A stretch of 64,000 nucleotides of DNA from Bacteroidota bacterium (GTDB lineage Bacteria > Bacteroidota > Bacteroidia > Bacteroidales > UBA12481), in contig JABHCC010000149.1 of NCBI GenBank assembly GCA_018669475.1, positions 1 through 64,000 on the forward strand, written 5' to 3'. Under the pieces are notes generated by a model. That model did not search any database. It was not told the origin of the DNA and worked only from the letters and a program-made list of their open reading frames with translations. Shown piece after piece: positions 43,419 through 62,113 of the stretch; position 1 is the stretch's first letter, and every line of letters begins with the position of its first letter. A program made the position numbers and the translations under genes.

Positions 43419-44355
43419 AAAAACAACAGACGATGTTAAAGCTGTGGTTCTCCGTATTGAGAGGATGTCTATTTTTGATGGGCCGGGTTTGCGAACGGTT
43501 GTGTTCCTAAAAGGATGCCATCTCAACTGCCAATGGTGTTCAACTCCGGAGTCTCAAATTATAAAACCAGAAAAGGGATTTTTGCAAGATCGCTGCAGAG
43601 AGTGTGGATCCTGTATTGAAAATTGTAAAACAGGAGCCCTTTCGATGATAGAAGGAAGAGTTGTGACTGACCACTCCCTGTGTAGTTCATGTTTTGAATG
43701 TGTAGATATTTGTCCTCATGATGCACACAAAAGCTTTGGACAGGAAATGACAGATTCTCAGGTGTTTGATGAGATTAGCAAGGATGAAGTATTTTTCTTT
43801 CACTCGGGAGGTGGTGTAACTATTAGCGGAGGGGAATGTCTTTGTCAGCCTGATTTTGTCATCTCTGTTTTAAAGAAATGCAGGATTCGTGGTATCTTTA
43901 CGGCAATTGAAACAAGCCTTTCAGTAAGCTGGGAGATTATCGAAAATGTGCTTCCGTTTATTGATAATCTGTATGTGGATATTAAACATTTGGATACCAG
44001 AATGCACAAGAAATTTGTCGGTGTCAATAATAAACTTATTCTCTCCAATCTTGAAAAACTTGATAGATCTGAATTACCATTCGATTTGCATATTCGCATA
44101 CCATTGATTCCGGGAGTTAATGATGATGATGCCTCTCTTTTAGCCCTGATTCCTGTCATGAAGTCGTTAAAGAGGCTTACTGACATTGAAATTCTTCCGT
44201 ACCACCGCCTTGGTGTTGGAACCTATGCCCAGCTGGGTAAGGATTACAAATTTGAGGGTCTTCAGCCGCCAACAGAGGAATATATTGCCGAACGCATTGA
44301 GTTTTTGAGTAAACAGGAATTGACCGTTCCGCTTAGAATTGCAGGAGGTGCTTAG
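43399..44355 (+). CDS. Glycyl radical enzyme activase (radical SAM)
   Basis: A 318-residue activase that abstracts hydrogen from the glycine of its partner. It has the radical SAM motif CHLNCQWC (CX3CX2C, near residue 34-41) and an inserted ferredoxin-like domain with two clusters, CRECGSCIENC and CSSCFECVDICP, as in eliminase-type activases. GGGVTISGGE and the late LPYHRLG are family features. It overlaps the glycyl radical enzyme gene by 20 bases, so the two are translationally coupled. Confidence 0.93.
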   Translation: MESQSGRKTTDDVKAVVLRIERMSIFDGPGLRTVVFLKGCHLNCQWCSTPESQIIKPEKGFLQDRCRECGSCIENCKTGALSMIEGRVVTDHSLCSSCFECVDICPHDAHKSFGQEMTDSQVFDEISKDEVFFFHSGGGVTISGGECLCQPDFVISVLKKCRIRGIFTAIETSLSVSWEIIENVLPFIDNLYVDIKHLDTRMHKKFVGVNNKLILSNLEKLDRSELPFDLHIRIPLIPGVNDDDASLLALIPVMKSLKRLTDIEILPYHRLGVGTYAQLGKDYKFEGLQPPTEEYIAERIEFLSKQELTVPLRIAGGA

Positions 44356-48141: not shown

Positions 48142-51100
48142 ATGGATATAGATAATGGTCTTATCTCCTATATATCTCCCATAAAGCTTCCGGAATTATC
48201 TGTCAAAAGTTTTAATCAGCTTATTTTTGACACATTACAAAACCGTTCTACTCAATCGGAGATAATTATCGGCCATGTTGGCAATGATTTAATCAGGATT
48301 AACCTTCATCACTTGCAATCTATTGTCAGAACTGTCTATTGGAAGGTGCATGAACTTGGATTATCACCCGGAGATACAGTACTGCTTTGCCGCCTGGAAG
48401 GGGGAAGTGAGCTAAATATTGCATTATTGCTTATTGCTTTAAGTGCATATGGTTTACGGGTGTTTCTACCTATGTATATGGAACCAGATCGCTTGGCATA
48501 TTGGATAAATCTGGCAGGAGTTAAATGTGTATTGTTGCCTGAAAATGAATTTGCTAAGAATGACAGCCATCACAAGGAAAAAGAGCAAATTAAATTGATC
48601 AAGAATATTGCCTCTGATTTAAGAATTCAGGTTGTCGATGTACAGGATGGGCAAAATACAGTAGGAATTCTACCTGATTCCCTTGGAGGTGAGGAGGAAA
48701 AAGATGGTTTTCCTCCTGCGATCGGTAGTTTTGATAGCCTTCAAACTGAGGCATTAATTGTTACCACTTCTGGAACTTCGGAGGATTCCAAACTTGTAGT
48801 TTATACCCAGGGAGCGATTCTTAATTCTTGTTTGTCATGGGAAACTGCAGGATTTTTCAGCCCTGAAATAATGGGAGGAAGGAGTTTTACTCCCCTGATT
48901 TCACATACAATGGGTGTGCGTGGATTATTTAATGCATTGTGGTCAGGTCACGCTGTATGCCTTATTAACTCCAGTTATTACACGGAGAAACCAGAAATAG
49001 CCCGGTATTTCTTGATGGAAATGAAACCTGAGAATATAACTGGTGGACCTGCTTTGTACCAGATGTTACTTGAGATGATCCGATTGTTCCCTGAACTGAG
49101 AGATGGTTTACGACAGCATCTTCAAACCCTGGTTTCAAGTGGAACAAATTTCAATCCAACAACTTTGAAGGTTATTGAGGATGCTTTTGAGAAACCTCTG
49201 CACAATGCTTTTGGTACGACCGAAACACACCAGGTCACTAATACATTGTTGTCTAAAGAGAATAATAGTTATTCGGATTCTGTTTTGGGAGGCCTGTTGC
49301 CGGGAGTTGAAATTGAGCTTAAGCCAACAGAGGATAATCATGATTTATATTCCTTACAGGTATATACTCCATTCATGCATAAGCGTGTGCTGGGCAAGAC
49401 TCAAGAAAATCAACCATCAACTGACAAATTCTTTGCAACAAAGGACCTGATAAAGATTGGGGCAGAAGGACAATTGATTTTTGTTGGACGTGAGGATTAT
49501 GATTTCCTGAAAGATGGATTTGGCGTGAAGATTCCCTTAGCATCTATCAGGGGATATTATGAAACTCTGATTGAAAGATACAATTATGTCCATTTTGTTC
49601 CGGTTAATGCCTACCCTGGATTAGCAGTGTTGATATTTGATCCGGACAGCCAAGAGCTGGTGAGGAGAAAAGATTCAGTTAAACGATTGATAAAGGATAT
49701 CAATTCAAATCTCAGAAAGCAACTAACTCCTTTCGAGTACAAGCACAGGCATATTGCAGCTTATCTTATTATAAGTGAAACTGCACCGTTGACCAGCAAG
49801 GGCAATGTTTCGATCAGGATTCTGAAAAAGAACTATTCCCGTGAATTGAAAATGCTTGAAAACTTATTTAATCGACAAACTGAAATTAGCCTGATAGAAG
49901 ATGACGAGCCTGATGTTGATCCTTTCTCCGAATTCTCCAATCCCTATTTGGGCTTTATGATCAGGGCGCTAAAAACAAATTGGAGTTTTCATAGGGGCAG
50001 AGGTGATGAGTTGTATAGTCACCGTGATGGGAAGGAGCTTGCGGTAATAGATTTTGTAGGAGGATATGGTACTGGCCTGCTCGGTCATAATCATCCTGCT
50101 ATCAGGAAGTCGATTAGTGATTTCTTAGATAAGGAAGCTGTTCCTTTATCAGATCAGTTCAGTAGTCACGATATAATCGGACGGTTAGCCCGCGATCTTG
50201 AAAATGAGGTTTCATCAATCCATAAGACTCGTTTTGTAACATTATTTGGTTCAACAGGTTCAGAGGTGGTAGAAATGGCATTGCACCATGCATATTTGGA
50301 ATGGACAAAAAAATTCAAAAAGATAAGGGACGATCAGTTCAGGCAATTTGCTGATGTTGCGGGTAATCTTGTTCAAGATATTTGGGATAAAAACCAGCAA
50401 AATTTTAAGAGACAAAGAGTAAGTGTGGTTTCACATGTAAAAGGATATCACGGACTTACTTCTGGAGCACGTGCAATTCTTGGTGAAGGGGAGAGGAAAA
50501 AACCATTCACAGGCTTGTTTGCTATTAATTCGATCCAGATAGATGATCAGATGTTGGATTGGAAAGCTATTCTCGAAAAAAAAGTTTCTGAGGCTACTTT
50601 TGAAATCAAGATATTGAAACTATCGAAGCAAGAGGTAAGGGTTGAGAAGGTTCCTGTTTCTTTAATTTTAGCAAGTATTTTTGAGCCAATTCTTGGTGAA
50701 GGAGGAGTACGTGAATTAGCCCCTGGAGTGTTGGAATACTTTGCTGAACAATCATATCCCCTGATAATTGATGAAATACAAACAGGCCTGGGACGTACCG
50801 GGGAATTCCTTGCTTCGCAAAATGTAAAAGGAGACTATTATCTCTTGTCTAAATCGCTCGGAGGTAATTATCATAAACTTGCTGCTCTTCTGATTCGCAA
50901 AAGTCGATTCATTACCAAATTTCAAAAGCACTTTCTGAGCACTTTTTCAATGGGGGCTCTGGCAGCCCAATCAGCTTTGACATCCCTTAGTATAGTCAGG
51001 CAGGATCAGTTAGCGAAATTGGCCCGGGGAAAAGGGAGTTATCTTATGGATGGGCTTTCCCAACTTATGTTGAAGTTCCCTTCACTTATTAAGCGGGTAG

Positions 51101-52545
51101 GCGGAAGAGGCCTGATGTGTGGATTGCAAATGTGTGACATGTTAGATCTCGAATCACTTCTGATCAGAACATTATACAAGCATAAGTTATTGGCTTACTT
51201 TTGCTCAGCGTATCTGCTTAATGTTCACCAGATTCGAGTTCTGCCAACATTGTCAGCAAGCGATACCCTTCGTTTTGAACCTAGTGCCTATATCAGTCAT
51301 TTACATATAGATAAGCTTCTGAAAGCATTGGACTCATTTTTCTATTTAGTAGAAACTAAAAATACCTACGAATTGTTCAAATTCCTGATGGATGGAGATC
51401 CTTTTACTGATAATCGGGGATTTAGGCCTGAGCAGGGTTTAATAGATGTAAAATATGAAAAACCTGTTAAAGGGGCTCGAAGAATAGCCAGTATTGTGCA
51501 TTTTGCCTACCCAACTGAAGAGCTTCGGATCATGGATCCCTGCCTGGCTCAAGGTTCTGATACAGGATTGAGAATTTTATTCAGTCGTTTTCAGGCAGTT
51601 CTTGCAGGTAAGACGATATTGTTATCTGCCAAAAACCTTCACAAAGGCACAATCCATTTATCCATATACTTATTGACTGCCGACTCAGGAGAACTAGAAC
51701 GCTTACAAAAGGAGGGACGTAGAAACAAGACTACCAGAAGAATCCAAAAGGCTGTGAATCTGGCCGCAAAGAATGGAGCTGAGGTGATTAGCCTTGGGGG
51801 ATTTACTTCGATTCTCACTCGAAATGGTACTCAAATTGTTCCTCCTCCTTCATCAAGGATTACTACAGGTAACAGTTTAACTGCTGGTATGGGGATTCGA
51901 AGAATGTTCAATGAGATTGAGAAGAAAGCTCATTTAAAAGAGGATGTGAATATTGCACTTGTAGGATCAACCGGTAATATTGGCTCACTGATAGGGAGAG
52001 AATTAATAATAAAAGAAGGGTACTCCAGGTTAGTGCTAATTTCCCGGCGAAAGGTGAGTTCAGATATGATAGTCAAGCGTTATCGATTGCCAGAGGATGT
52101 ACAATTTGACCAGAACAAAATCCTTGTGTCAACAAATCTGTCAAATATTCAATCATGTAATTTTATTGTGGCAGTTAGTAATTCTTCTGATCCTATCATC
52201 TTTCCAAGCCACATTCGGTCGGATACTCAAGTAAATATCTTCGATGTGTCAATACCCTCTGCTGTTTCAATGGATGTTCATCAAATGGAGAATGTCAATG
52301 TTATCCCATTTACTGCCTATGCGGCTCTACCCCATGATCCGAATTATGTTATCAGCACCTGCCTGCCTCGGGGAACAATGTTTTGTTGTATGGCGGAAGG
52401 TATCCTGTGTGCTCTGGAAGATGTCAATTACAAGTTGACAGGGAGAATTGATCCTGAGGCTGTAGATCACCTTGTCAGATTAGCTGAGAAACAAGGCCTG
52501 ACTGCAGGGTCGGATTTAGCAAAATCTTTTAAAAAAAGAATGTGA
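48142..52545 (+). CDS. Adenylating domain - class III aminotransferase - acyl-ACP-reductase fusion
   Basis: A 1467-residue, three-part enzyme, first gene of a 14-kb operon. Residues 1-570 form an acyl-adenylating domain: TTSGTSEDSK (about 207-216), FGTTETH (357-363), GREDYDFLKDGFG (449-461) and a tail LTSKGNVSIRIL (about 552-563). Residues 600-1080 form a class III PLP aminotransferase: GLLGHNHP, GSTGSE, DEIQTGLGRTG with Asp877, and SKSLGG with the presumed PLP Lys904. Residues 1150-1467 match cyanobacterial long-chain acyl-ACP reductase: LGGFTSI, TTGNSLTAG, a GSTGNIGS nucleotide-binding loop and FCCMAEG, with Cys1416 aligned to the acyl-enzyme Cys. The order suggests activation of an acid, reduction of acyl thioester to aldehyde and transamination to amine. 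Reaction order and substrate are inference. Confidence 0.87.
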   Translation: MDIDNGLISYISPIKLPELSVKSFNQLIFDTLQNRSTQSEIIIGHVGNDLIRINLHHLQSIVRTVYWKVHELGLSPGDTVLLCRLEGGSELNIALLLIALSAYGLRVFLPMYMEPDRLAYWINLAGVKCVLLPENEFAKNDSHHKEKEQIKLIKNIASDLRIQVVDVQDGQNTVGILPDSLGGEEEKDGFPPAIGSFDSLQTEALIVTTSGTSEDSKLVVYTQGAILNSCLSWETAGFFSPEIMGGRSFTPLISHTMGVRGLFNALWSGHAVCLINSSYYTEKPEIARYFLMEMKPENITGGPALYQMLLEMIRLFPELRDGLRQHLQTLVSSGTNFNPTTLKVIEDAFEKPLHNAFGTTETHQVTNTLLSKENNSYSDSVLGGLLPGVEIELKPTEDNHDLYSLQVYTPFMHKRVLGKTQENQPSTDKFFATKDLIKIGAEGQLIFVGREDYDFLKDGFGVKIPLASIRGYYETLIERYNYVHFVPVNAYPGLAVLIFDPDSQELVRRKDSVKRLIKDINSNLRKQLTPFEYKHRHIAAYLIISETAPLTSKGNVSIRILKKNYSRELKMLENLFNRQTEISLIEDDEPDVDPFSEFSNPYLGFMIRALKTNWSFHRGRGDELYSHRDGKELAVIDFVGGYGTGLLGHNHPAIRKSISDFLDKEAVPLSDQFSSHDIIGRLARDLENEVSSIHKTRFVTLFGSTGSEVVEMALHHAYLEWTKKFKKIRDDQFRQFADVAGNLVQDIWDKNQQNFKRQRVSVVSHVKGYHGLTSGARAILGEGERKKPFTGLFAINSIQIDDQMLDWKAILEKKVSEATFEIKILKLSKQEVRVEKVPVSLILASIFEPILGEGGVRELAPGVLEYFAEQSYPLIIDEIQTGLGRTGEFLASQNVKGDYYLLSKSLGGNYHKLAALLIRKSRFITKFQKHFLSTFSMGALAAQSALTSLSIVRQDQLAKLARGKGSYLMDGLSQLMLKFPSLIKRVGGRGLMCGLQMCDMLDLESLLIRTLYKHKLLAYFCSAYLLNVHQIRVLPTLSASDTLRFEPSAYISHLHIDKLLKALDSFFYLVETKNTYELFKFLMDGDPFTDNRGFRPEQGLIDVKYEKPVKGARRIASIVHFAYPTEELRIMDPCLAQGSDTGLRILFSRFQAVLAGKTILLSAKNLHKGTIHLSIYLLTADSGELERLQKEGRRNKTTRRIQKAVNLAAKNGAEVISLGGFTSILTRNGTQIVPPPSSRITTGNSLTAGMGIRRMFNEIEKKAHLKEDVNIALVGSTGNIGSLIGRELIIKEGYSRLVLISRRKVSSDMIVKRYRLPEDVQFDQNKILVSTNLSNIQSCNFIVAVSNSSDPIIFPSHIRSDTQVNIFDVSIPSAVSMDVHQMENVNVIPFTAYAALPHDPNYVISTCLPRGTMFCCMAEGILCALEDVNYKLTGRIDPEAVDHLVRLAEKQGLTAGSDLAKSFKKRM

Positions 52546-53627
52546 TGGAGGTGCTTTTCAATTTCGGTCTGTCTCAAGACGATTCCCGAACGGAAAAACA
52601 GTTTCTGAAATTATCAGAGGATGACCATGTTTTGTGTCTGGCGAGCGGAGGTGAGGTTCCATTGGATTTGATCTCAGGAATAAAAGACATTCATATTGAT
52701 GCGGTTGATACAGATCAGAATCAGCTGTTTTTAGCACAATTGAAACACAAAGCTGCAATTCATCTTGATCCAAATGAAGCAGCTTTGCTGCTTGGATATT
52801 CTAAGGGGAGCGAAGCTATAAGGCGAACATTATTAAGCCATTTGAAATTCCATTTATCCGAAGCTGAAAAAGACTTCTGGAAGCATAATATTGATCTGTT
52901 TAATTTGGGGCCCATTCATGCAGGTCGTTTTGAAACATACATTCGGAAATACAATAAAATCGTCTCTTCTCTCCTTGGAAAGAAACATCTTATTGCCCTA
53001 ATGGGCATGAATGATCGTGCAGAACAGGAGGACTATTTTGATCATTATTTCAGAGTCAGACTTCTTAAATTTATTTTCAGGATAGCCTTTCACCCCCGAA
53101 TATATAAAAGCCGTGGAGTTGTGGAAGAAGGACTACAGCATAGCAAGACAAGCAATATGGCAGAATTTTTTTACAGCCGTTTCAGAAATTTTTGCGTAGC
53201 CAACCCAGCGGCGAAAAACGGCTATTACCAGTTTACTTTTTTCAACGAGATGATACTACCAGAAGCATTTCCTGATTTCCTTCAGGTAAAGAATCTTAAT
53301 ATCCTCAGGGCTCAGACTCAAAACCTGAATTTCTTTAAAACTGATATCATGGATCACCTGAAACAGGTCGAGGATAATTATTATTCTAAAATTGCTTTAT
53401 CAAACCTCAGCGACTGGATGAGCTGTGATGAGATTACAAGCTTGCTAGATATAATCCTAAAGAAAGTAAAACCCGGTGCCCGTATCCTGGCCAGGTATAT
53501 CCATGCTCCAATTATCTTGTCAGGTGATCATGCCGATCGATTTGAAATTGATTATGAGCAAGCAAGGGATCTTATGAATAAAGAGCGATATCCCTTTTAC
53601 TCACTGATTCCCATGGTAGTTACATGA
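52545..53627 (+). CDS. BtaA/DUF3419-type SAM-dependent 3-amino-3-carboxypropyltransferase
   Basis: A 360-residue protein of the DUF3419 family. BtaA, the known member, moves the aminocarboxypropyl group of SAM to diacylglycerol in betaine-lipid synthesis. Visible features: LCLASGGEVPLDLI, then AVDTDQNQLFLAQLKHKAA (cofactor loop and acidic residue), GPIHAGRFETYI, and a Rossmann-type C-terminal half with SNLSDWM. The ATG at 52545 overlaps the preceding stop by one base (TGATG), so translation is coupled. BtaB, which would methylate the product, is absent here. In this cluster the acceptor may be an amine or alcohol made by the other enzymes. Confidence 0.82.
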   Translation: MEVLFNFGLSQDDSRTEKQFLKLSEDDHVLCLASGGEVPLDLISGIKDIHIDAVDTDQNQLFLAQLKHKAAIHLDPNEAALLLGYSKGSEAIRRTLLSHLKFHLSEAEKDFWKHNIDLFNLGPIHAGRFETYIRKYNKIVSSLLGKKHLIALMGMNDRAEQEDYFDHYFRVRLLKFIFRIAFHPRIYKSRGVVEEGLQHSKTSNMAEFFYSRFRNFCVANPAAKNGYYQFTFFNEMILPEAFPDFLQVKNLNILRAQTQNLNFFKTDIMDHLKQVEDNYYSKIALSNLSDWMSCDEITSLLDIILKKVKPGARILARYIHAPIILSGDHADRFEIDYEQARDLMNKERYPFYSLIPMVVT

Positions 53628-53690
53628 GATTTTGATTTAAGCATGTATTCAGGTATATTTGTTTAAGTGCCATTCACTTAAACCATTACT

Positions 53691-54173
53691 ATGCGATTCT
53701 ATCTGGTTGATCGAATAACCCAAATAGAGCACGGAGCTTCTATTGAAGGCATTAAAGCCTGGACTTTATCGGAAAACTATTTTGAGCAACACTTTCCGGG
53801 ATATCCTGTTGTTCCCGGAACCTTACTAATTGAGTCGATGGCACAGATTCTGGGATATCTGGGCGAAATCAGTTACGAAAAGGAATTTTGTGATACAAAA
53901 GGTGTATATGTGTTATTGACCATTATTCATCGGGCTAAATTCAGAGACTATGTGATTCCCGGGGATCAGTGTATTTTGAAAGGAAGGCTTAAGTCTCTGG
54001 ATAAAAATCGTTGTTCGGGATCAGCTGAAGTCTATGTCAATAAAAAGCGTATGGCAGAAGCAGAGCTCTCATTTATAATTATTCAGCAGCATATGCTGCC
54101 ACCAAATAAGTACATTTCCAAGCGAGATGAGTACAACCATATTCTTACACAAGAAAGACAAAGGGGGACATGA
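53691..54173 (+). CDS. FabZ-like hotdog-fold dehydratase
   Basis: A 160-residue 3-hydroxyacyl-ACP dehydratase. The active-site segment is QHFPGYPVVPGTLLIESMAQ-like: His34 in HFPG and Glu48 in ESMAQ. It supplies the dehydration step of chain building on the cluster's ACP. Its stop overlaps the next gene by four bases (ATGA). Confidence 0.9.
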   Translation: MRFYLVDRITQIEHGASIEGIKAWTLSENYFEQHFPGYPVVPGTLLIESMAQILGYLGEISYEKEFCDTKGVYVLLTIIHRAKFRDYVIPGDQCILKGRLKSLDKNRCSGSAEVYVNKKRMAEAELSFIIIQQHMLPPNKYISKRDEYNHILTQERQRGT

Positions 54174-55249
54174 GCGAACGGATATTCATGACCGATTATG
54201 TATATGCCTTGCCCGGACTTCCGGGACAGTATGAAATAGCTAAAGCCATGGATGGGCATGAGGCAGTTTTCGATAATAATTCAGAATCACCTTTTTTTGG
54301 GAAATTAGACTTTCCAGAAGAACTTTTAGCCCTGATAAGAAAGCAGGATTTGAAGAGTATGCGTGAAGATGCCCTTGCTGCAGGTATATGTAGTTGGTTG
54401 TTGATGAATCGTTTGGATATTGATAAGGATGAATTGATCTCTCTACCTCTCTTTGTGGCCACCGGGGTAGTAATCGAGAAATTATTTGCAAGAAAACCAA
54501 AAGTGCTAAAGTATTTCAATCAGGCTTTAATGATGGAATCGACGGTGGATAAAAACAATCGATTGTCAAGGATTCTGCCACCTTTATTGGCTCTGGAAAC
54601 TCTGACAAATGCTGCTGAGACTTATGCCGCCCAGTATGGGGGGATGGCAGGTGAAAATACAACATTTGGAGGATGTTCATTAGGTGGATTCTATTCTTTG
54701 AAAGAAGGGTTTGACCAAATTATTTCCGGAAACATTGGAAGAGCTGTTGTTGGAGCGGTAAACCTTAGTGGTATTAATTCCTACAGAACATTCAGCCCTT
54801 TTTTCCAGTCTGTTGATCACTGGCACGAGAGCCCGTGTGCAGTTTTTATGATTCTTGAATCTGAGAGCAATTTGAAAGCAAGGGCGGGATTAAATGCATT
54901 TGAACTAACTAAACTCGAGGCTATTCCGACAATTCCTTCATTATTTGAACCGCAGGAGAAAACCTTTAGGGATTCCATTTTAAACTCAAGTTCATCTTCT
55001 TCATTGGTTTTTAGCGGAGCTTTCACTGATAAAGCATATGAATTGGATTACCGGGCATGCACAGCTACAAGTTCGAATTCGTTCAGCTGGTATCCATCCT
55101 ATGGTAATCTTGGATCTGCTTCTGTATTGATGAATTTATTGGGGGCTACTCATTTCATAGATACAAAAAAAGCAGAGACTGTTGAATGTCTTGATCGGGA
55201 TCCATATGGAAGGATTTCCAAAGTCAGGCTTAAGAAATATCAATTATGA
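54170..55249 (+). CDS. Degenerate ketosynthase (chain-length-factor-like)
   Basis: A 359-residue thiolase-fold protein related to beta-ketoacyl synthases but not catalytically typical. A Cys lies in TFGGCSLGG (Cys169). The C-terminal GHxxGAAG motif reads YGNLGSAS, with Asn313 in place of the catalytic His, and no HGT motif is visible. It sits directly before an intact ketosynthase, in the arrangement of KS/CLF pairs of type II polyketide and aryl-polyene systems, but with the order reversed. Likely a heterodimer partner that shapes the chain-length pocket. Overlaps both neighbours by four bases. Confidence 0.8.
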   Translation: MSERIFMTDYVYALPGLPGQYEIAKAMDGHEAVFDNNSESPFFGKLDFPEELLALIRKQDLKSMREDALAAGICSWLLMNRLDIDKDELISLPLFVATGVVIEKLFARKPKVLKYFNQALMMESTVDKNNRLSRILPPLLALETLTNAAETYAAQYGGMAGENTTFGGCSLGGFYSLKEGFDQIISGNIGRAVVGAVNLSGINSYRTFSPFFQSVDHWHESPCAVFMILESESNLKARAGLNAFELTKLEAIPTIPSLFEPQEKTFRDSILNSSSSSSLVFSGAFTDKAYELDYRACTATSSNSFSWYPSYGNLGSASVLMNLLGATHFIDTKKAETVECLDRDPYGRISKVRLKKYQL

Positions 55250-56541
55250 TTAAGGAAAGGGTATTTGTGCTTGATTATGATCTGATCAGTCCCTTGGGAG
55301 TGGGAAAGAAAGATGTTTGGGAAAATATTGAAGATCAAAAATCCGCTGAGGATGAGATTACGAACTTTGATGTGGATGGTCTGCAAATACGTCATGGATG
55401 TGAGGTTAAGAATGGTTTACGGCAGTTGTACTGCAATGAACCTGAACAATTATTGGCTGCCATGAGGTTTGACCGAAAACTTGAACTTCTATGTGCTGTA
55501 TATAAGCTGATGAATGACAGGCTTTTAGTCTATCTGGAAAAGGTCGAATCAGGCAGGGCAGGAGTTATTTTGGGCTTAGGAGTTGATGTTTTCCCCTTTG
55601 AGTTATTGGATAAGGATATACTAATGCGTTTGGGATCTGAAATGGATCCATTATTGCTTATTTCTGAACAGATGAAAACCTGGTCGGGTCCTCTCAATCT
55701 GGTTCTAAATCCATTTGATATGTATCCCATCTACCTTGCTGAGAAGTTGGGATTGGCAGCTTTCCAGAAAACTGTACTGACGGCCTGTGCGGCTTCTACT
55801 CAGGCTTTTATTCTTGGGTGTCAGGCTATTGCAAGAAGAGAAGTTGATGTTGTTCTGGTGGGAGGAACTGATTCAATTCTAAATCTGGTGGGATTAACAG
55901 GTTTTTCAAAACTGGGTGTTCTGGCTGAGTCCGATTCAAATCCAGGGACTAGCTGCAAACCATTTGATGTCAATCGCAAGGGAACTTTGGCTGGTGAGGC
56001 AGCTGGTTTGTGTCTATTAGTATCTGAAAAGTACCTGGACCGCACTGGTGGAAATCCCAGTTTTGAAGTATTGGGCCATGGCAATACACTTGATGCATAC
56101 CAAATCACTGCCCCTGATCCAGAGGCAAAAGGCATGATCCGTGCAATTGAAAATGCCTTGAAGGGTTCTGGGATCAAGCCTGAGGAAATCGATACTATTA
56201 ATTTGCACGGTACAGGTACTTATTTGAATGACCCAGCAGAATTGTTGGCTCTGGAAACCGTTTTTGGTAATGTTCTTAACAAGATACCTGTTTGCTCAAC
56301 AAAAGACAGGCATGGACATGCAATCGCTGCCGCTGGTATCCAGGAACTTGTTGTTTTGTTTGAATGTATGTCAAATAATATGGTGCCAAGTACGATAAAT
56401 CTTACTCATCCTATTGGTGATAGTGGTGCAGATTTTGTCATGGGAACTAACCGGAGAACTCCACTTAATATAGGAATGAGTAATAATTTTAGTTTTGGAG
56501 GTATCAATACCTCTGTTGTGGTGAAGAAAATTAACCAATGA
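55246..56541 (+). CDS. Beta-ketoacyl-ACP synthase (active KS)
   Basis: A 431-residue ketosynthase of the FabF type with a full Cys-His-His triad: Cys181 in LTACAAST, His321 in LHGTGT and His358 in KDRHGHAIAAAG. It condenses malonyl-ACP with the growing acyl chain. It pairs with the CLF-like protein encoded just before. No malonyl-CoA:ACP transacylase is present in the cluster, so this is presumably borrowed from primary fatty-acid synthesis. Confidence 0.94.
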   Translation: MIKERVFVLDYDLISPLGVGKKDVWENIEDQKSAEDEITNFDVDGLQIRHGCEVKNGLRQLYCNEPEQLLAAMRFDRKLELLCAVYKLMNDRLLVYLEKVESGRAGVILGLGVDVFPFELLDKDILMRLGSEMDPLLLISEQMKTWSGPLNLVLNPFDMYPIYLAEKLGLAAFQKTVLTACAASTQAFILGCQAIARREVDVVLVGGTDSILNLVGLTGFSKLGVLAESDSNPGTSCKPFDVNRKGTLAGEAAGLCLLVSEKYLDRTGGNPSFEVLGHGNTLDAYQITAPDPEAKGMIRAIENALKGSGIKPEEIDTINLHGTGTYLNDPAELLALETVFGNVLNKIPVCSTKDRHGHAIAAAGIQELVVLFECMSNNMVPSTINLTHPIGDSGADFVMGTNRRTPLNIGMSNNFSFGGINTSVVVKKINQ

Positions 56542-56554
56542 ATTAAGGCTAAAT

Positions 56555-57313
56555 ATGGATCTGAAACTTGACAATAAAAGAGTTCTTATGACGGGTGCAA
56601 CGGGGGGGATCGGCCGTGAGATTTGTAAGGCTTTTCTGATGGAAAATGCAAAGATCTTCAATTTTTACCGGGAACGGAATAAAATGGAGAGTCTTGTAAG
56701 CTGGCTTAATGATCAGGGAATTTCAACTGACAAGCTACATGGTTGTTCCGTTAATCTTTCAGATCAGGACTCTGTGGAAGATGGCTTCAAAAAAATGATG
56801 AGTGAGTTTGGAGGAATTGATATCTATGTGAACGTTGTGGGAAAAGCTGTTGAGAGTCCATTTTTATTGGGAAATTCTGATGATTGGGAAAAGGCTCAGG
56901 AAATTAACCTCAAACCTGCTGTTTTGCTTAGTCGTTTGGTCATTAAGCCCATGATGCTTGCTCGCTCAGGATCAATTGTGTTTATTAGTTCTATTGTTGC
57001 CTGGCGATTTGGGAGGGGAGTCGTGCCATATGCAACTGCTAAAGCTGCACTCAATCGCTTTGCTGAGACTCTTGCCTTCGAAGTGGGCCAGAAAGGAATT
57101 AGAGTAAATCTGGTTTGTCCGGGAATGATAGATACCAAGATGGCTGAATCTATTAAACAAAAGCATTCTGATTTTTTAGAATATCATTCAGCACTGGGGC
57201 GTATTGGAAAACCAAAAGAGATAGCTCCAGCAGTACTCTTTTTGGCCTCTGATGCCACGTCATCATATATGACCGGACAAAAAATTGTTGTAGATGGTGG
57301 TGTAAGCCTCTAA
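56555..57313 (+). CDS. FabG-type SDR ketoreductase
   Basis: A 252-residue short-chain dehydrogenase with TGATGGIG at the nucleotide-binding end, the catalytic YATAK (Tyr and Lys four residues apart) preceded by SSIV, and the C-terminal GQKIVVDGGVSL. It reduces 3-ketoacyl-ACP to hydroxyacyl-ACP in this context. It is 13 bases after the ketosynthase. Confidence 0.92.
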   Translation: MDLKLDNKRVLMTGATGGIGREICKAFLMENAKIFNFYRERNKMESLVSWLNDQGISTDKLHGCSVNLSDQDSVEDGFKKMMSEFGGIDIYVNVVGKAVESPFLLGNSDDWEKAQEINLKPAVLLSRLVIKPMMLARSGSIVFISSIVAWRFGRGVVPYATAKAALNRFAETLAFEVGQKGIRVNLVCPGMIDTKMAESIKQKHSDFLEYHSALGRIGKPKEIAPAVLFLASDATSSYMTGQKIVVDGGVSL

Positions 57314-57336
57314 AAATAAATATAAAGAAACTAAAG

Positions 57337-57726
57337 ATGAAAGATAATTTAGTGTTGAATTTTATCATTGAGTCCATTTCAGAATCCAGCGGATTGGAAG
57401 TGGAATCTATAAATCCCGGTAGTACTTTATTTCAAGACTTGTGCCTTACTTCCATTGATATGGTAGAAATTTTCTACATGATTGAAATGGAGTATGATAT
57501 CAGCCTAAGAGCTTCTGATTTTGAAAATGATCTCAGGAAGGACATGGACGGTGAAGAATTCGAAATTGACAATGTTATAACTGATAAAGGCCTAGCTGCC
57601 ATCCGACAGAAGCTTCCGGAGATTAATAGCGACAATCTTAAGCAAGGACTTACGGTTGATCAATTGATAAAATTTATCACTGTTAGAGCGCTGGCCAATC
57701 TAGTAACTATCAAAATCAATCAATAG
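57337..57726 (+). CDS. Acyl carrier protein, long form
   Basis: A 129-residue acidic protein with an acyl carrier domain in the first 80 residues. The pantetheine attachment Ser is Ser39, in DLCLTSIDMVEIF. The tail of about 45 residues beyond a normal ACP is predicted to be helical and is not explained by the family. No phosphopantetheinyl transferase is encoded nearby. It would carry the intermediates of this cluster. Confidence 0.85.
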   Translation: MKDNLVLNFIIESISESSGLEVESINPGSTLFQDLCLTSIDMVEIFYMIEMEYDISLRASDFENDLRKDMDGEEFEIDNVITDKGLAAIRQKLPEINSDNLKQGLTVDQLIKFITVRALANLVTIKINQ

Positions 57727-57729
57727 CTT

Positions 57730-58818
57730 ATGTTCCCCAGAATCTGTTTAGCTGGTGCAACAGGATTTACTGGTCAACTCATTGCCTCAGAGTTAATGAT
57801 CAGGGGGATTCCGTTCAGTATTTTGGGACGTAATTTGGAGAAAATGAGGCTGTGGCAGCAACAGACCGGGCACCATGGAGAACTTCTTTGTGCCAACATT
57901 CAGGATGAGGTAGAAATCATCAAAGTGCTTAATAAAACTGATCTGGTAGTCAATTGTGTTGGCCCATTTAATCTATTTTCAACTGAACTTTGTGCTGTGG
58001 TTACCAAGTTAGGGAAAGATTATTTTGATATTACCGGTGAACAGTCATTCGTGAAATATTCACATGAAAGGAATGCAGAAAAGGCCAAGCAAAGTGGTGC
58101 TTCTATTGTTCATTCCATGTCTTTTGAATCTTGTCTGGCAGACATTATGGCTAGTCATTTGGTGCAGGATTCTGATCAGGTAGAGGAAATCTCGTCATTC
58201 TATTATTTTTCGGCAACAAGACCATCACCAGGGACTCGTTTAACGATGCAAACAGCCCATTACTTTCCTACTTTTGCTGTTCGTAACCATCAGATCAAAG
58301 AGATCCCTCCTCTGGCCTGGTCAAGAAAAGCTTCATGTTCTGAGATCCCGGAAATAAAGACTGCTTTCTTCATGCCTTACCCAGAAGTCATTTTTTTTAA
58401 GGAAAGGTACAATCCCAAGGTTTCGGGTTCTTTCATATTAAGCAATGAGGAAAAGAATTCATTTCCCAGATCAAAGATTCAGGGAGATCAGAATGATCTC
58501 AACAAGATTGTAGAGCGGCATAGTAAGCGCAGAGTAAAGCCTATCACAAAGGAGGAATGTATGGGTCAGAAATTTAGTTTGTATTTACGGGTTCTTACAA
58601 GGGATGGTCGTGTAAAAATTAAATGTATTAAAGGAGCCGATATGTATGGAGTGACAGCAGCAATAGTTGCTGAAGGAATATCGTATTACATGAAAATAAA
58701 TAATCCGGGAGGGATGTATTCACCGGCATTATTCTTTGGAGATTATCCTTTGCTAGACAGGCTGATAACTACTCACGGAATACAGATTACCGAAGGATCA
58801 AATTTATTAGAGTTGTAA
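57730..58818 (+). CDS. Saccharopine-dehydrogenase-like (trans-acting enoyl reductase type)
   Basis: A 362-residue NAD(P)-binding protein starting with a Rossmann motif, LAGATGFTGQLIASEL. It resembles the saccharopine dehydrogenase-like family that includes mycobacterial trans-acting enoyl reductases of lipid polyketide pathways: VVNCVGPFNLF, DYFDITGEQSF and MSFESCLADIM fit. It may reduce the enoyl-ACP intermediate; alternatively it might reduce an imine. It starts four bases after the ACP stop. Confidence 0.75.
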   Translation: MFPRICLAGATGFTGQLIASELMIRGIPFSILGRNLEKMRLWQQQTGHHGELLCANIQDEVEIIKVLNKTDLVVNCVGPFNLFSTELCAVVTKLGKDYFDITGEQSFVKYSHERNAEKAKQSGASIVHSMSFESCLADIMASHLVQDSDQVEEISSFYYFSATRPSPGTRLTMQTAHYFPTFAVRNHQIKEIPPLAWSRKASCSEIPEIKTAFFMPYPEVIFFKERYNPKVSGSFILSNEEKNSFPRSKIQGDQNDLNKIVERHSKRRVKPITKEECMGQKFSLYLRVLTRDGRVKIKCIKGADMYGVTAAIVAEGISYYMKINNPGGMYSPALFFGDYPLLDRLITTHGIQITEGSNLLEL

Positions 58819-58839
58819 ATATTGAAGATTAGAGATCAA

Positions 58840-60960
58840 ATGAAGACTGACAGAATAATTCTCTTCTTGATCAGGAATAACAAGAGTTTATTCTTCCTGG
58901 CTCTGGTCATTATTGTTGGAATGGTTCTGCTAATTCGTCCCGTTTCTATTACAGGTGATTTTTCAGGTTTTGAAATGCGTCAGAATCCTTATCAGCAGGT
59001 TGAGAAGACATTGTCTGAAGAATTCCACACCAGGAGTTTGATTCAGCTTAAAATCACACAAAAGGACCAGCCTATATCTGTCCTTTGCAACAATCTTAAT
59101 GAGCTTGAGAATGATGTAAAAGCCATAATTCCAGATGCTCACATATTATCCATTCACCAGATTGATAAATTGCTTTTCCAATTATATGGAAAAGAAGCTT
59201 CTGCTATGAAAGTATTGGAAAGATGCCACAGTCTTCCATTTCTATCCAATATGATTTCTTCAGATAATCGTTCATTCCTATTCCTGATCCAGGTGACTGA
59301 TAATGAATCATTTCCGTTGGAGGCTTTTAATCAGTTGATTGGGGAGGACTATGCAGGTATTGTGAAAATGAATCCAATGAGTTACTTCCATATTTCTGAC
59401 GATATTGAGACGGCTCTCAGGAAAGATCTGGTACTTATTCCCATTGTTCTTCTCTTAATAACAATTGGATTGATCTTAATGATATTTAAAAGAGTCAGTG
59501 CCCTGGCTTACATATTTGGTCAGATATTCATTAGTATGATTCCGATATTTTTCATTCTATCCGTATTCAAAATACCAATTAGCCTGGGAACAATATTGAT
59601 CTTACCGGTTGTCATTGTCATTGCTCTGGCCGATGGCATACACTTATTGGTTGGATACCATAATCAGGATCCGAGTCAAAATCGTCAGGAGGCTGCGAAA
59701 AAGACACTCAAGTTATTTATTGTCCCATCATTTCTAACCTCTCTAACCACAGCTGTTGCCTTCTGTTCATTCGGACTTTCCGAATCGGTCGGAATTCGGC
59801 ACTTTGGTCTTATAACAGGTATTGTTGTTTTATTCGAATTTTTCCTCACTTTCATGATTTCGCCATACTGGTTAAGTCGCTTGAGTATATCAAATCTTAA
59901 TGCTCGCACATTATCAAATATTTTTCCGGTTTTAGTGAGGTACCGAAAACCTATCGGAGCTTTCCTATTAGTCTTATTAATATCTGCTGCTTTATTCATA
60001 CCTCAATTAAAGTTTGCAACTAATTATGAGAAATTTTTCCCTTCACGATCAAATATTGCAAGTACGTATGAAGAGTTTAAACGGGATTTTAAATCTCCGG
60101 TAAGCATGGATATTGTACTAGCCTTAGAAAAGCCTACTAGAGATATTTTGTCGGGTGATTATCCTGCTTTTACCGAATTGGATGCTCTTGTCGATGAAAT
60201 TAAAGGACTTGATGAGGTGAAGAGAGTTAATTCAGTAGCAGGAATTAAGGCTTTTACTGATCGCTTCAAGGGTTTTGGACTCCTGGTAGACTATTCAGAT
60301 GATCACCACCCATTCTACAATAAGGAAAAACAATTGTACAGAATCAATATTTGGACAGAAACCACCGATGACTTGTATTTACTTAAAGATAAAGTCACTT
60401 TGGTCCTTGAACAATATTCATCTGTTTTTTCCTCCCGGATATATGGTAGTGTTTTCTTATTAGATTATGTGAATCAGAGTGTTGCAAGATCACTTTTTCG
60501 CTCATTGCTTCTGTCATCTCTGTTGATCTTTGTAATCTTTGCTCTTCTATCACGAAATCTGAGAGTAGCCTTGGTTAGTATTCTGGCCAACATCATTCCA
60601 TTGAGTGCAATGGTTCTCATTTTTGTTTTTTGGGATCTTAACCTGAATATCCTTACATCATTGATTTGTGTGATCTGTTTGGGCCTAATGGTAGACGATA
60701 CCATCCATATCCTGTACAGAAAGGTGCAATTAAAATCCTCAGTCGGAAAGTTGAGTGAGGGTATGATCACAAGCTCACTGATTTTATTTGGTGGTTTTGC
60801 TATTCATGGGCTAAGCAGTTTTGAGCCAACTCGTAACTTTGGATTGACCTGTTCGATTATTTTTATGCTTACCCTTGTCAGTGACCTGGTATTGATTCCG
60901 TGGGGAGTTGAACTCTTTTCAAGAAAAGAGAAGAATAAAACTGATGATCATCATGAGTGA
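58840..60960 (+). CDS. MMPL/RND-family lipid exporter
   Basis: A 706-residue inner-membrane protein with two repeats of a membrane-helix block and a large periplasmic loop, as in RND/MMPL transporters. The helix-4 type motif is seen twice: ALADGIHLLVGY and LMVDDTIHILYR, each with the charged residues of the proton relay. TTG at 58822 is a possible longer start. The family exports lipids and hydrophobic products. It is the likely exporter for the cluster product. Confidence 0.85.
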   Translation: MKTDRIILFLIRNNKSLFFLALVIIVGMVLLIRPVSITGDFSGFEMRQNPYQQVEKTLSEEFHTRSLIQLKITQKDQPISVLCNNLNELENDVKAIIPDAHILSIHQIDKLLFQLYGKEASAMKVLERCHSLPFLSNMISSDNRSFLFLIQVTDNESFPLEAFNQLIGEDYAGIVKMNPMSYFHISDDIETALRKDLVLIPIVLLLITIGLILMIFKRVSALAYIFGQIFISMIPIFFILSVFKIPISLGTILILPVVIVIALADGIHLLVGYHNQDPSQNRQEAAKKTLKLFIVPSFLTSLTTAVAFCSFGLSESVGIRHFGLITGIVVLFEFFLTFMISPYWLSRLSISNLNARTLSNIFPVLVRYRKPIGAFLLVLLISAALFIPQLKFATNYEKFFPSRSNIASTYEEFKRDFKSPVSMDIVLALEKPTRDILSGDYPAFTELDALVDEIKGLDEVKRVNSVAGIKAFTDRFKGFGLLVDYSDDHHPFYNKEKQLYRINIWTETTDDLYLLKDKVTLVLEQYSSVFSSRIYGSVFLLDYVNQSVARSLFRSLLLSSLLIFVIFALLSRNLRVALVSILANIIPLSAMVLIFVFWDLNLNILTSLICVICLGLMVDDTIHILYRKVQLKSSVGKLSEGMITSSLILFGGFAIHGLSSFEPTRNFGLTCSIIFMLTLVSDLVLIPWGVELFSRKEKNKTDDHHE

Positions 60961-62113
60961 ACGATTTTATGGAATGGACTTCTTAAGGATGGCACTGATG
61001 CTGTCAGGAATTGTTTTTCACGCCGGTCTGTTTTATACTTGTACTGAACACGAAACCTTGTGGCCTATTCAGGTATCAGAGTGTCATATGACTTTCGATG
61101 TTATTTGTGGATGGTTACACCTTTTTCGTATTCCTGCATTCTTTGTTATCGCTGGTTTTTTTGCTGCACTACTTCTTGAAAAGCGTGGTTTGACTGGGTT
61201 TGTCATTAACCGTTTTTGGCGTATAGTGCTCCCCTTTGTCCTGGCTTGGCTCATTCTTTTTCCAGTAGTGATATTGATATTTTACCTCTTAAATCATCTG
61301 GGGGATGAGCATGTTTTTTCTGATACCATTACTGGACTGTTTAGTAGAGAGTTGATTGGGTATAAGCCTAAAATAACGATACACCTTTGGTTTCTTTATT
61401 ATCTGATCTTCTTCTATGTGGTATTGCTCCTAATCAGGAGGTTCTGGAAACCAAGATCAAAAAGGCCATTGCTTTTGGTATTGGGATTTGCGATGGTTTT
61501 GTCAGGTCTTGGCTTTTTCTTTTGTGAATCAGGAGAATTCAATGGATTTTATTCTTTCAATCCCGATTTCTTTTCCCTCGGTGGATTTGCTCCATTTTTC
61601 TTTTTCGGTTATTTGCTTTATCACCATCAATACTGGATTAAGAGGTTTATGAAATCCTATGTATCTATGCTCGCATGGTCAATAATTCCCTTTATCACTT
61701 ATTTGCTATTAAGGATAGGCCGGATTGACCTTGGGGAAACAATTACTAAACTTTTGCTTGTTATTTCTTCAATAATATTTTCCTGGCTAATGATTCTGGC
61801 CTTGATCGGTTGGGTCAGCTATAAATTCAGGCAATCAAATCCTGTGATTCGTTATTTGTCAGATGCTTCTTATTGGATATATTTGGTTCACCTTCCTATG
61901 ATATTGCTCATTGGGGGATTATTAAACGAGCTTATCCATTTTTCATTATTTGTTTGGATTTTGAATATCCTGTTGACATCAATATTTACCCTCTTGACAT
62001 ATCATTTTCTGGTGCGACCAACTATAATAGGGAAATTGCTGAATGGAAGAAAGTATCCTTTCGCTAATCCTTTCAGAATTACCAGGAAAATCGAAGGCCA
62101 AATGAAGATGTGA
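60953..62113 (+). CDS. Acyltransferase-3 family membrane protein
   Basis: A 386-residue protein of about ten membrane helices. The start chosen, ATG 60953, overlaps the exporter's stop by eight bases; an upstream start (60908) would add 15 residues inside the exporter's coding end. AT3 features: FYGMDFLRMALM, GIVFHAGLF with the catalytic-type His, and RIPAFFVIAGFF. Such proteins O-acylate sugars or lipids at the periplasmic side. Likely finishes the exported molecule. Its 3' end overlaps the convergent gene at 62079 by 35 bases. Confidence 0.83.
   Translation: MSERFYGMDFLRMALMLSGIVFHAGLFYTCTEHETLWPIQVSECHMTFDVICGWLHLFRIPAFFVIAGFFAALLLEKRGLTGFVINRFWRIVLPFVLAWLILFPVVILIFYLLNHLGDEHVFSDTITGLFSRELIGYKPKITIHLWFLYYLIFFYVVLLLIRRFWKPRSKRPLLLVLGFAMVLSGLGFFFCESGEFNGFYSFNPDFFSLGGFAPFFFFGYLLYHHQYWIKRFMKSYVSMLAWSIIPFITYLLLRIGRIDLGETITKLLLVISSIIFSWLMILALIGWVSYKFRQSNPVIRYLSDASYWIYLVHLPMILLIGGLLNELIHFSLFVWILNILLTSIFTLLTYHFLVRPTIIGKLLNGRKYPFANPFRITRKIEGQMKM

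What the first reader, a model, noticed from the sequence alone, without database searches (positions are those of the whole stretch)
48142..52545. Three-domain adenylation/aminotransferase/acyl-ACP-reductase fusion
The C-terminal third matches cyanobacterial acyl-ACP reductase in order and motif (LGGFTSI, TTGN, nucleotide loop, Cys1416), and that enzyme is usually a stand-alone hydrocarbon-pathway protein. Here it is fused to an aminotransferase, implying acid to aldehyde to amine in one chain. Reduction-plus-transamination in one polypeptide has a parallel in PigE-type prodigiosin enzymes, but with unrelated reductases as far as I recall.
Basis: partly seen in the sequence, partly recalled or inferred. 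Interest (0 to 1): 0.85.

Follow-up and report, generated by a model that had tools for sequence, protein, structure and literature searches.

The report
Fused fatty-acid-to-amine enzyme in lipid operon
A bacterial gene fuses three enzyme domains that should turn a fatty acid into a fatty amine within one protein, and its relatives sit beside genes that point to an undescribed kind of lipid, although none of this has been tested in the laboratory.

Summary
Confirmed: window 48142-52545 is one intact 1467-aa ORF: adenylation (A), class III aminotransferase (AT), acyl-ACP-reductase-like thioester reductase (TR). Lys904, Cys1416 and the other catalytic residues are invariant in 15 of 15 full-length relatives. 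New here is the A domain on the same chain, without an ACP domain. A-AT-TR proteins form one clade; a Leisingera plasmid carries a separately made AT-TR-A fusion.

The larger finding is the neighbourhood. In 16 of 17 loci (Bacteroidota, Aminicenantes, Acidobacteria MAGs) the next gene is a BtaA-like DUF3419 enzyme (the 17th is cut by its contig end); in 13 of 17 a double-GNAT acyltransferase follows. None of the 17 shows the BtaB-like methyltransferase found near 29 of 30 other DUF3419 genes. The window lacks the adjacent GNAT but carries a type II KS/CLF set, ACP and exporter. Best reading: a trifunctional fatty-acid-to-amine synthase whose amine accepts a SAM-derived 3-amino-3-carboxypropyl group, giving an uncharacterised aminolipid. 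Acceptor and product are inferred.

The parts
48142..49896 (+). Adenylation (ANL) domain, residues 1-585; Lys553 (the lysine of the C-terminal A10-like motif; motif names recalled) is encoded at 49798-49800
   Evidence: Pfam AMP-binding E 9.9e-22; T209, S210, G211, E361, D435, R450, K553 invariant in 15 of 15
49897..51396 (+). Class III aminotransferase domain with linkers, residues 586-1085; PLP lysine Lys904 encoded at 50851-50853
   Evidence: Pfam Aminotran_3 E 4.6e-37; D877 and K904 invariant in 15 of 15; model best matches CrmG and PigE, Z 36.8
51397..52545 (+). Acyl-ACP-reductase-like thioester reductase domain, residues 1086-1467, and stop; GxxGxxG encoded at 51964-51984; Cys1415-Cys1416 at 52384-52389
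   Evidence: profile match to AAR 6jzq E 1.4e-18 and PigE 4.2e-16; residues invariant in 15 of 15
52542..53627 (+). DUF3419 (BtaA-like) protein, predicted SAM-dependent 3-amino-3-carboxypropyl transferase; next gene after A-AT-TR in 16 of 17 loci
   Evidence: Pfam DUF3419 E 1.4e-43; class I methyltransferase fold in the model, Z up to 14.0; synteny
53691..54173 (+). FabZ-like 3-hydroxyacyl-ACP dehydratase
   Evidence: NCBIfam FabZ E about 2e-28, below that model's cut-off; Pfam FabA-like E 2.1e-19
54170..55249 (+). Ketosynthase-like chain-length-factor-type subunit (KSb)
   Evidence: no Pfam or NCBIfam hit; aligns with the KS of the same cluster but lacks both active-site histidines
55246..56541 (+). 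FabF-type ketosynthase (KSa) with Cys-His-His
   Evidence: Pfam ketoacyl-synt, NCBIfam fabF E 5.1e-77; TAC, HGTGT and GHAIAAAG present
56555..57313 (+). FabG-type ketoreductase
   Evidence: NCBIfam FabG E 1e-55
57337..57726 (+). Separate acyl carrier protein with a C-terminal extension; LTSIDMVE phosphopantetheine-site-like motif
   Evidence: Pfam PP-binding E 1.4e-7; sequence
57730..58818 (+). Saccharopine-dehydrogenase-like NAD(P)-binding protein; possible trans enoyl reductase (recalled analogy)
   Evidence: Pfam Sacchrp_dh_NADP E 4.2e-5, just under its cut-off
58822..60960 (+). MMPL/HAE3-type RND exporter
   Evidence: Pfam MMPL E 7.6e-7, NCBIfam HAE3 E 1.4e-13; MMPL relatives at 7 of 17 loci
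60908..62113 (+). Acyltransferase_3 membrane protein, last gene of the run; membership in the pathway uncertain
   Evidence: Pfam Acyl_transf_3 E 9.7e-32

Best explanation
The protein is a trifunctional fatty-acid-to-primary-amine synthase. The A domain adenylates a carboxylic acid with ATP. The acyl group is handed on as a thioester, through the separate ACP encoded in the same run of genes or through CoA, to Cys1416 of the TR domain. NAD(P)H reduces the acyl-enzyme to the aldehyde, and the AT domain (PLP on Lys904) turns the aldehyde into a long-chain amine. [quoted passage not shown] In 13 of the 17 loci a GNAT enzyme is placed to acylate the product. Shown: domain content, residues, gene order, family membership, single origin of A-AT-TR in the sample. 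Inferred by homology to TamA plus TamH: the acid-to-amine reaction. Inferred from synteny only: that the amine is the acceptor for DUF3419 and that the product is a lipid.
For: Domains and residues. The same chemistry by the same domain kinds on two proteins (TamA ANL-ACP plus TamH AT-TR turn C12 acid into C12 amine; PMC9594044, read in parts 1-3 of 5). A second, separate fusion of an A domain to AT-TR in the other order (Leisingera, 1395 aa) says that these three activities work together. DUF3419 is next in 16 of 17 loci and GNAT in 13 of 17, over MAGs titled Bacteroidota, Aminicenantes and Acidobacteria. The DUF3419 of these loci is a clade of its own (14 of 14 rows, 100/100), and none of the 17 loci has a BtaB-like methyltransferase, whereas 29 of 30 other DUF3419 loci fetched do. 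DUF3419 is the BtaA family (PMC6642084, passages) and the model has a SAM-methyltransferase fold. The separate ACP, KS/CLF, KR and DH in the window can supply the acyl chain.
Against: No ACP domain in the chain, and the window's ACP used as a single query found no ACP in the other loci, so the thioester carrier is unknown in most of them. The A domain's only PDB match at E 1e-10 or better is Cfl, an acid-amine ligase (E 1e-13); its NCBIfam matches are mixed acyl-CoA ligase and amino-acid adenylation models, all far below cut-off, so its substrate is open. If the FAS set delivers acyl-ACP, an A domain is not needed to feed the TR. The window copy is the most diverged of 15 (36 lone departures at otherwise invariant columns against 0-12 in the others, among them G214E and G434K in A-domain motifs) and lacks the adjacent GNAT. 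In G563 a stand-alone reductase with an aldehyde-decarbonylase-like protein, and no AT or A domain, also sits with DUF3419 and a GNAT, so the acceptor need not be an amine in every case.
Confidence: 0.5

Rival explanations
1. The A domain is an amide ligase. The TR takes acyl-ACP straight from the neighbouring KS/CLF synthase, the AT makes the amine, and the A domain joins an activated second acid to that amine.
For: The A domain's closest PDB sequence is Cfl, known as an acid-amine ligase (recalled). The window and L031 carry a KS/CLF, KR and DH set, so acyl-ACP is to hand. KecF is proposed to reduce an ACP-bound polyketide and transaminate it without any A domain (PMC6498172, passages).
Against: KS/CLF genes were found in only 2 of 17 loci. 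In tambjamine biosynthesis the adenylating partner of an AT-TR protein loads the acid for reduction (PMC9594044, PMC5939613). The match to Cfl is distant.
Confidence: 0.2
2. DUF3419 is an ordinary BtaA acting on diacylglycerol; the amine from A-AT-TR goes elsewhere (for example into a separate natural product) and the two genes only share an operon.
For: The DUF3419 shares core residues with the BtaA-type rows (D55, W112, N225, W291 and R317 among the columns kept in both groups). One G563 locus joins DUF3419 with reductase but no aminotransferase.
Against: No BtaB-like gene in 17 of 17 loci against 29 of 30 in the comparison set; the cassette clade is separate and differs at positions kept in BtaA-type rows (Q11 for W in 14 of 14 against 19 of 19; N287 for D in 14 of 14 against 18 of 19); adjacency is kept across three named phyla.
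Confidence: 0.2
3. The window's gene is a koreenceine- or tambjamine-like natural-product enzyme: the KS/CLF set builds a chain, A-AT-TR releases it as an aminoaldehyde or amine that cyclises, and the exporter secretes an alkaloid.
For: KS, CLF, KR, DH, ACP and an MMPL exporter follow directly; KecF and TamH act this way (PMC6498172, PMC9594044); a Photobacterium plasmid shows AT-TR with several ketosynthase-like genes, SDRs and an MMPL.
Against: DUF3419 is the next gene even where no PKS genes are present, so the common task is not polyketide release; DUF3419 is not part of the tam or kec pathways as described in the passages I read.
Confidence: 0.15
4. The window copy has decayed or changed task: catalytic residues remain, but loop glycines of the A domain have changed.
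For: 36 lone departures at otherwise invariant columns (17 in A, 11 in AT, 8 in TR) against 0-12 in 14 relatives; long end branch 1.34.
Against: An intact 1467-codon frame with the catalytic residues kept, and an equally long-branched, intact DUF3419 neighbour (end branch 1.13), fit faster evolution rather than loss.
Confidence: 0.1

Closest known systems
TamA plus TamH of tambjamine YP1 biosynthesis (Pseudoalteromonas tunicata)
   Same: ANL domain, class III AT and AAR-like TR cooperate to turn a fatty acid into an amine; AT-TR in the same order (PMC9594044)
   Different: There the ANL is fused to an ACP and is a separate protein; here A, AT and TR are one chain without an ACP; no DUF3419 or GNAT is described there in what I read
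KecF (koreenceine) and PpKTFusion (PP_2782)
   Same: AT-TR fusion in the same order, with KS/CLF-type PKS genes near KecF (PMC6498172, PMC10829540)
   Different: No A domain is reported; the proposed release gives tetrahydropyridine alkaloids
PigE (prodigiosin)
   Same: Same two domain kinds; best NCBIfam match (224.8 bits) and a top structural match of the AT part
   Different: Opposite order (TR-AT), no A domain, below the PigE model's cut-off of 850 bits
BtaA/BtaB betaine-lipid synthesis
   Same: DUF3419 family, SAM-methyltransferase fold
   Different: No BtaB-like neighbour in any of 17 loci; separate clade; GNAT instead in 13 of 17
Leisingera plasmid protein AT-TR-A (NZ_CP109791.1)
   Same: The same three domains on one chain, followed by an MMPL exporter gene
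   Different: Other domain order, outside the A-AT-TR clade; neighbours listed include no DUF3419-named gene
Carboxylic acid reductase (CAR, A-T-R; recalled)
   Same: Activates and reduces an acid on one chain
   Different: CAR has a carrier domain and an SDR-type reductase (recalled); here no carrier domain and an AAR-type reductase

Membership tests
Acyl-ACP reductase (AAR) superfamily, for the TR domain | Sequence relationship to solved AAR over the catalytic region | tested here: met
   6jzq E 1.4e-18, profile positions 108-367 of 380
Acyl-ACP reductase (AAR) superfamily, for the TR domain | GxxGxxG nucleotide loop and catalytic cysteine in place | tested here: met
   G1275, G1278, G1281 and C1416 in 15 of 15 relatives; C1416 aligned to the AAR cysteine
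Acyl-ACP reductase (AAR) superfamily, for the TR domain | Reduction of an acyl thioester to the aldehyde | not testable with these tools
   needs an enzyme assay
AT-TR fusions of the TamH/KecF kind | Class III AT with PLP lysine followed by AAR-type TR on one chain | tested here: met
   K904 and C1416 also in 6 of 6 AT-TR outgroups
AT-TR fusions of the TamH/KecF kind | Two domains only | tested here: not met
   an AMP-binding domain precedes AT-TR; so it works like TamH plus TamA and is an extended variant
PigE | TR-AT order and NCBIfam PigE equivalog cut-off (850 bits) | tested here: not met
   order AT-TR; 224.8 bits
TamA | ANL domain fused to an ACP | tested here: not met
   no PP-binding match in the chain at E up to 1; about 35 residues between the domains
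Fatty acyl-AMP ligase or acyl-CoA ligase, for the A domain | Family-specific profile match | tested here: inconclusive
   mixed weak matches, none near cut-off
BtaA (DUF3419), for the neighbour | Pfam DUF3419 above cut-off | tested here: met
   150 bits against cut-off 28.2
BtaA (DUF3419), for the neighbour | Partner BtaB methyltransferase next door | tested here: not met
   0 of 17 cassette loci; 29 of 30 comparison loci
BtaA (DUF3419), for the neighbour | Diacylglycerol as acceptor | not testable with these tools
   needs an assay
Type II KS/CLF system, for the window's downstream genes | One KS with Cys-His-His and one partner lacking the catalytic histidines | tested here: met
   alignment of the window and L031 pairs

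The most novel reading that the evidence does not exclude
The A-AT-TR, DUF3419 and GNAT genes are a dedicated pathway for an undescribed glycerol-free, phosphorus-free two-chain lipid: a fatty acid becomes a long-chain amine, SAM supplies a 3-amino-3-carboxypropyl group on its nitrogen (N4-alkyl-2,4-diaminobutyrate), and the GNAT acylates that amino acid, much as ornithine lipids are acylated. In the window the alkyl chain is made to order by a type II KS/CLF synthase and the product is exported by an MMPL pump. A bolder detail: the Cys1415-Cys1416 pair, seen in 15 of 15 A-AT-TR proteins and in 0 of 6 AT-TR outgroups, lets the acyl group pass from the adenylate to the reductase without a carrier protein.
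Probability: 0.3. Interest if true: 0.8.

Novelty: new variant of a known kind. Interest (0 to 1): 0.6.

Why it matters
If right, one polypeptide turns a free carboxylic acid into a primary amine, which biocatalysis at present does with two proteins (TamA plus TamH). The operon would extend BtaA chemistry from diacylglycerol to a long-chain amine and reveal a membrane lipid class in uncultured Bacteroidota and Aminicenantes, many of the MAGs carrying lake-derived names. It makes specific mass-spectrometric predictions that can be checked.

Tried and rejected
Considered and rejected: (1) that the finding is a frameshift or chimaera artefact: the same three-domain ORF recurs in 15 full-length loci. 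(2) That it is PigE: wrong order and below cut-off. (3) That it is a CAR: no carrier domain, AAR-type reductase. (4) A DNA-level repeat or RNA element: the repeat finder gave only two-copy and imperfect matches of 27-32 nt, Rfam gave 0 matches in 40000-64000, and promoter- and terminator-like sites were no more frequent than in shuffles (38 against 40.5; 9 against 11.2).

Led nowhere or inconclusive: the structure search of the AT-TR model listed aminotransferases only in its first 50 rows, so it does not test the TR fold. DUF3419 has no PDB sequence match; its Foldseek matches are weak (best E 8.2e-4) and many methyltransferase rows are tied. The A domain's class was not resolved. The window's genome has a GNAT homologue on another contig (C58, 36% identity, E 1.3e-73) beside a DDAH-like gene, but its place in the GNAT tree is poorly supported, so I do not claim it belongs to the pathway.

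Counts and their limits. Full-length A-AT-TR: 2 of 12 genomes of the family (own and G011; other matches there are to single aminotransferase stretches), 2 of 295 of the order (own and G228; E 1e-40); in the class sample 2 of 395 at E 1e-50, of which one (G332) lacks the A domain; TR profile 2 of 395 in the phylum sample (own and G563). Sampled genomes overlap between these calls. The genome-contig scan used two peptide patterns only, so it finds close relatives (60 stretches, 15 loci). The 17 loci are those 15, the window and L049 (the wider region of L023, G228). L005 was left out because it has the contig length and gene of L039. L043 shows only a TR piece at the contig edge, a DUF3419 in two ORFs and a partial GNAT; L045 stops inside TR. 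The 30 comparison DUF3419 loci are the best-scoring 30 of 46, 28 of the 29 BtaB-like genes lie directly beside DUF3419 and one (L077) about 1.1 kb away; the DUF3419 tree used 19 of the 30. Long branches in the AT-TR tree make the placing of single outgroups unsure. The ACP search of the other loci used one query sequence.

Literature: papers were searched (open-licence library only). No listing showed an A-AT-TR protein, or DUF3419 with an aminotransferase-reductase; this does not prove absence in print. Seen: PMC9594044 parts 1-3 of 5; PMC10829540 outline, abstract, section 5 part 1 and one passage; PMC8341465, PMC5939613, PMC6498172, PMC10491745 and PMC6642084 passages only.

Full report
What is there. 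The gene at 48142-52545 encodes 1467 residues in one frame. It has an adenylation domain, a class III aminotransferase domain and a C-terminal reductase domain. The reductase domain is related to cyanobacterial acyl-ACP reductase and to the N-terminal part of PigE: single-sequence E-values are 1.4e-9 and 1.1e-12, profile E-values 1.4e-18 and 4.2e-16. Cys1416 aligns with the reductase's active cysteine, and Lys904 is the PLP lysine. These and the key adenylation residues are invariant in 15 of 15 full-length relatives. The aminotransferase part of the predicted AT-TR model (pLDDT 85.6) matches CrmG and PigE best (Z 36.8). The chain has no carrier-protein match.

What is and is not new in the enzyme. 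TamH is AT-TR in the same order, with an AAR-like reductase, and makes C12 amine from C12 acid together with TamA, an ANL-ACP protein (PMC9594044, parts 1-3 read). KecF is AT-TR in the koreenceine pathway, next to KS/CLF genes (PMC6498172, passages). PpKTFusion and thermophilic homologues were studied as natural transaminase-AAR fusions (PMC10829540, abstract and part of section 5). PigE carries the pair in reverse order (PMC8341465, passages). What I did not meet in these texts is an adenylation domain on the same chain. In a tree of 21 AT-TR regions the 15 A-AT-TR rows form one side of a branch with 100/100 support, in all of 200 bootstrap trees. The Leisingera protein P0002 has the order AT-TR-A and lies with the outgroups, so an A domain was joined to AT-TR at least twice. 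The Paraburkholderia phymatum protein has a carrier domain in front of AT-TR. Repeated joining of activation or carrier domains to AT-TR supports a shared reaction path.

Relatives and neighbourhood. The protein is rare: in sampled genomes full-length relatives were found in 2 of 12 (family) and 2 of 295 (order), own genome included. One scan of 84,980 species genomes with a reductase profile gave 15 loci from MAGs titled Bacteroidota or Bacteroidales, Aminicenantes, Acidobacteria and one plain 'bacterium'. Together with the window and G228 this makes 17 loci. DUF3419 follows directly in 16; the remaining locus, L045, stops inside the reductase. A double-GNAT protein of about 370 aa is next in 13 (L031-L043); it is not adjacent in the window, L044 or L049. 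MMPL-type exporters occur at 7 of 17. The KS, CLF and DH genes of the window recur only in L031. The window's own run of genes from 48142 to 62113 is all on the + strand with gaps of -53 to 63 bases.

What DUF3419 says. [quoted passage not shown] The model of the window's DUF3419 (pLDDT 89.7) has a class I methyltransferase fold (Z up to 14.0; the aminopropyl-group enzyme MccD is among the rows at 12.9), which fits SAM binding but proves no reaction. In a phylum sample 46 of 395 genomes have DUF3419, and the window's genome has only this one. Of 30 loci fetched, 29 have a BtaB-like methyltransferase, 28 of them directly beside DUF3419. None of the 17 A-AT-TR loci has one. The cassette DUF3419 rows form their own clade (14 of 14, 100/100). 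The two rows nearest to that clade are G563 and L082, both of which have a GNAT-family gene in the same run; in L082, the one comparison locus without BtaB, that GNAT did not match the cassette GNAT at E 1e-3. The natural reading is two uses of one transferase: with BtaB it leads to betaine lipid, with a GNAT to an N-acylated product.

How it most likely works. A fatty acid is adenylated; a thioester carrier delivers the acyl group to Cys1416; a hydride from NAD(P)H gives the aldehyde; the aminotransferase gives the amine; DUF3419 alkylates the amine; the GNAT, where present, acylates. The first four steps rest on homology with TamA and TamH. The last two rest on gene order, family and fold. 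In the window, the separate ACP and the KS/CLF, KR and DH genes may make the chain, and the exporter may move the product.

Results against this reading. The thioester carrier is not identified outside the window. The A domain resembles Cfl more than any other solved protein and does not fall clearly into a ligase family. G563 joins the reductase, DUF3419 and a GNAT with an aldehyde-decarbonylase-like protein, with no aminotransferase in the four-gene run, so DUF3419 may accept something other than an amine there. The window copy departs alone at 36 otherwise invariant columns, and its GNAT is not adjacent. Single-row departures also reflect its long branch.

Verdict. The enzyme is a new variant of a known kind (AT-TR fusions). 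The conserved operon with DUF3419 and GNAT is the more surprising part, and I met no description of it in the searches listed under Tried and rejected.

Noticed in passing
L053:6187-10161 (G563, Bacteroidota): Run of genes GNAT, aldehyde-decarbonylase-like (Pfam Ald_deCOase E 9.9e-14), stand-alone AAR-like reductase, DUF3419: reductase, DUF3419 and GNAT together without A or AT domains.
   Followed up: partly
L028:11437-15624 (Leisingera thetidis plasmid): 1395-aa AT-TR-A fusion, followed by an MMPL exporter and preceded by a LolA-like gene; three further Leisingera plasmids matched but their domain order was not checked.
   Followed up: partly
L025:14751-15461, L027:10508-11242, L085 near 8844: In 3 of 3 Rhodobacterales plasmid loci examined, the AT-TR gene lies near a protein ending in a VPLPA-CTERM exosortase signal; L025 also has exosortase XrtD. 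VPLPA was not found in the Photobacterium, Paraburkholderia or Leisingera loci. Perhaps a long-chain amine serves as lipid acceptor for an exosortase.
   Followed up: partly
window 52384-52389: The Cys1415-Cys1416 pair is present in 15 of 15 A-AT-TR proteins; the first Cys is Ala or Gly in 6 of 6 AT-TR outgroups.
   Followed up: partly
L029:11656-14595 (Paraburkholderia phymatum pBPHY01): Carrier domain-AT-TR fusion: PP-binding match at residues 54-89 in front of the aminotransferase.
   Followed up: no
L082:365-3294 (G785): 620-aa ORF holding a DUF3419 region, followed by a GNAT-family gene; the one comparison locus without a BtaB-like gene.
   Followed up: no
L043:610-1686: DUF3419 appears as two ORFs in different frames in this Acidobacteria MAG contig, either an assembly error or a broken gene.
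   Followed up: no
window 41034-44355: By sequence, a glycyl-radical-enzyme-like protein (794 aa) followed by an activase-like radical-SAM protein (318 aa) (families recalled, not searched).
   Followed up: no
G000:C58:70302-71399: The window's genome has a homologue of the cassette GNAT on another contig, beside a DDAH/ADI-like gene.
   Followed up: partly
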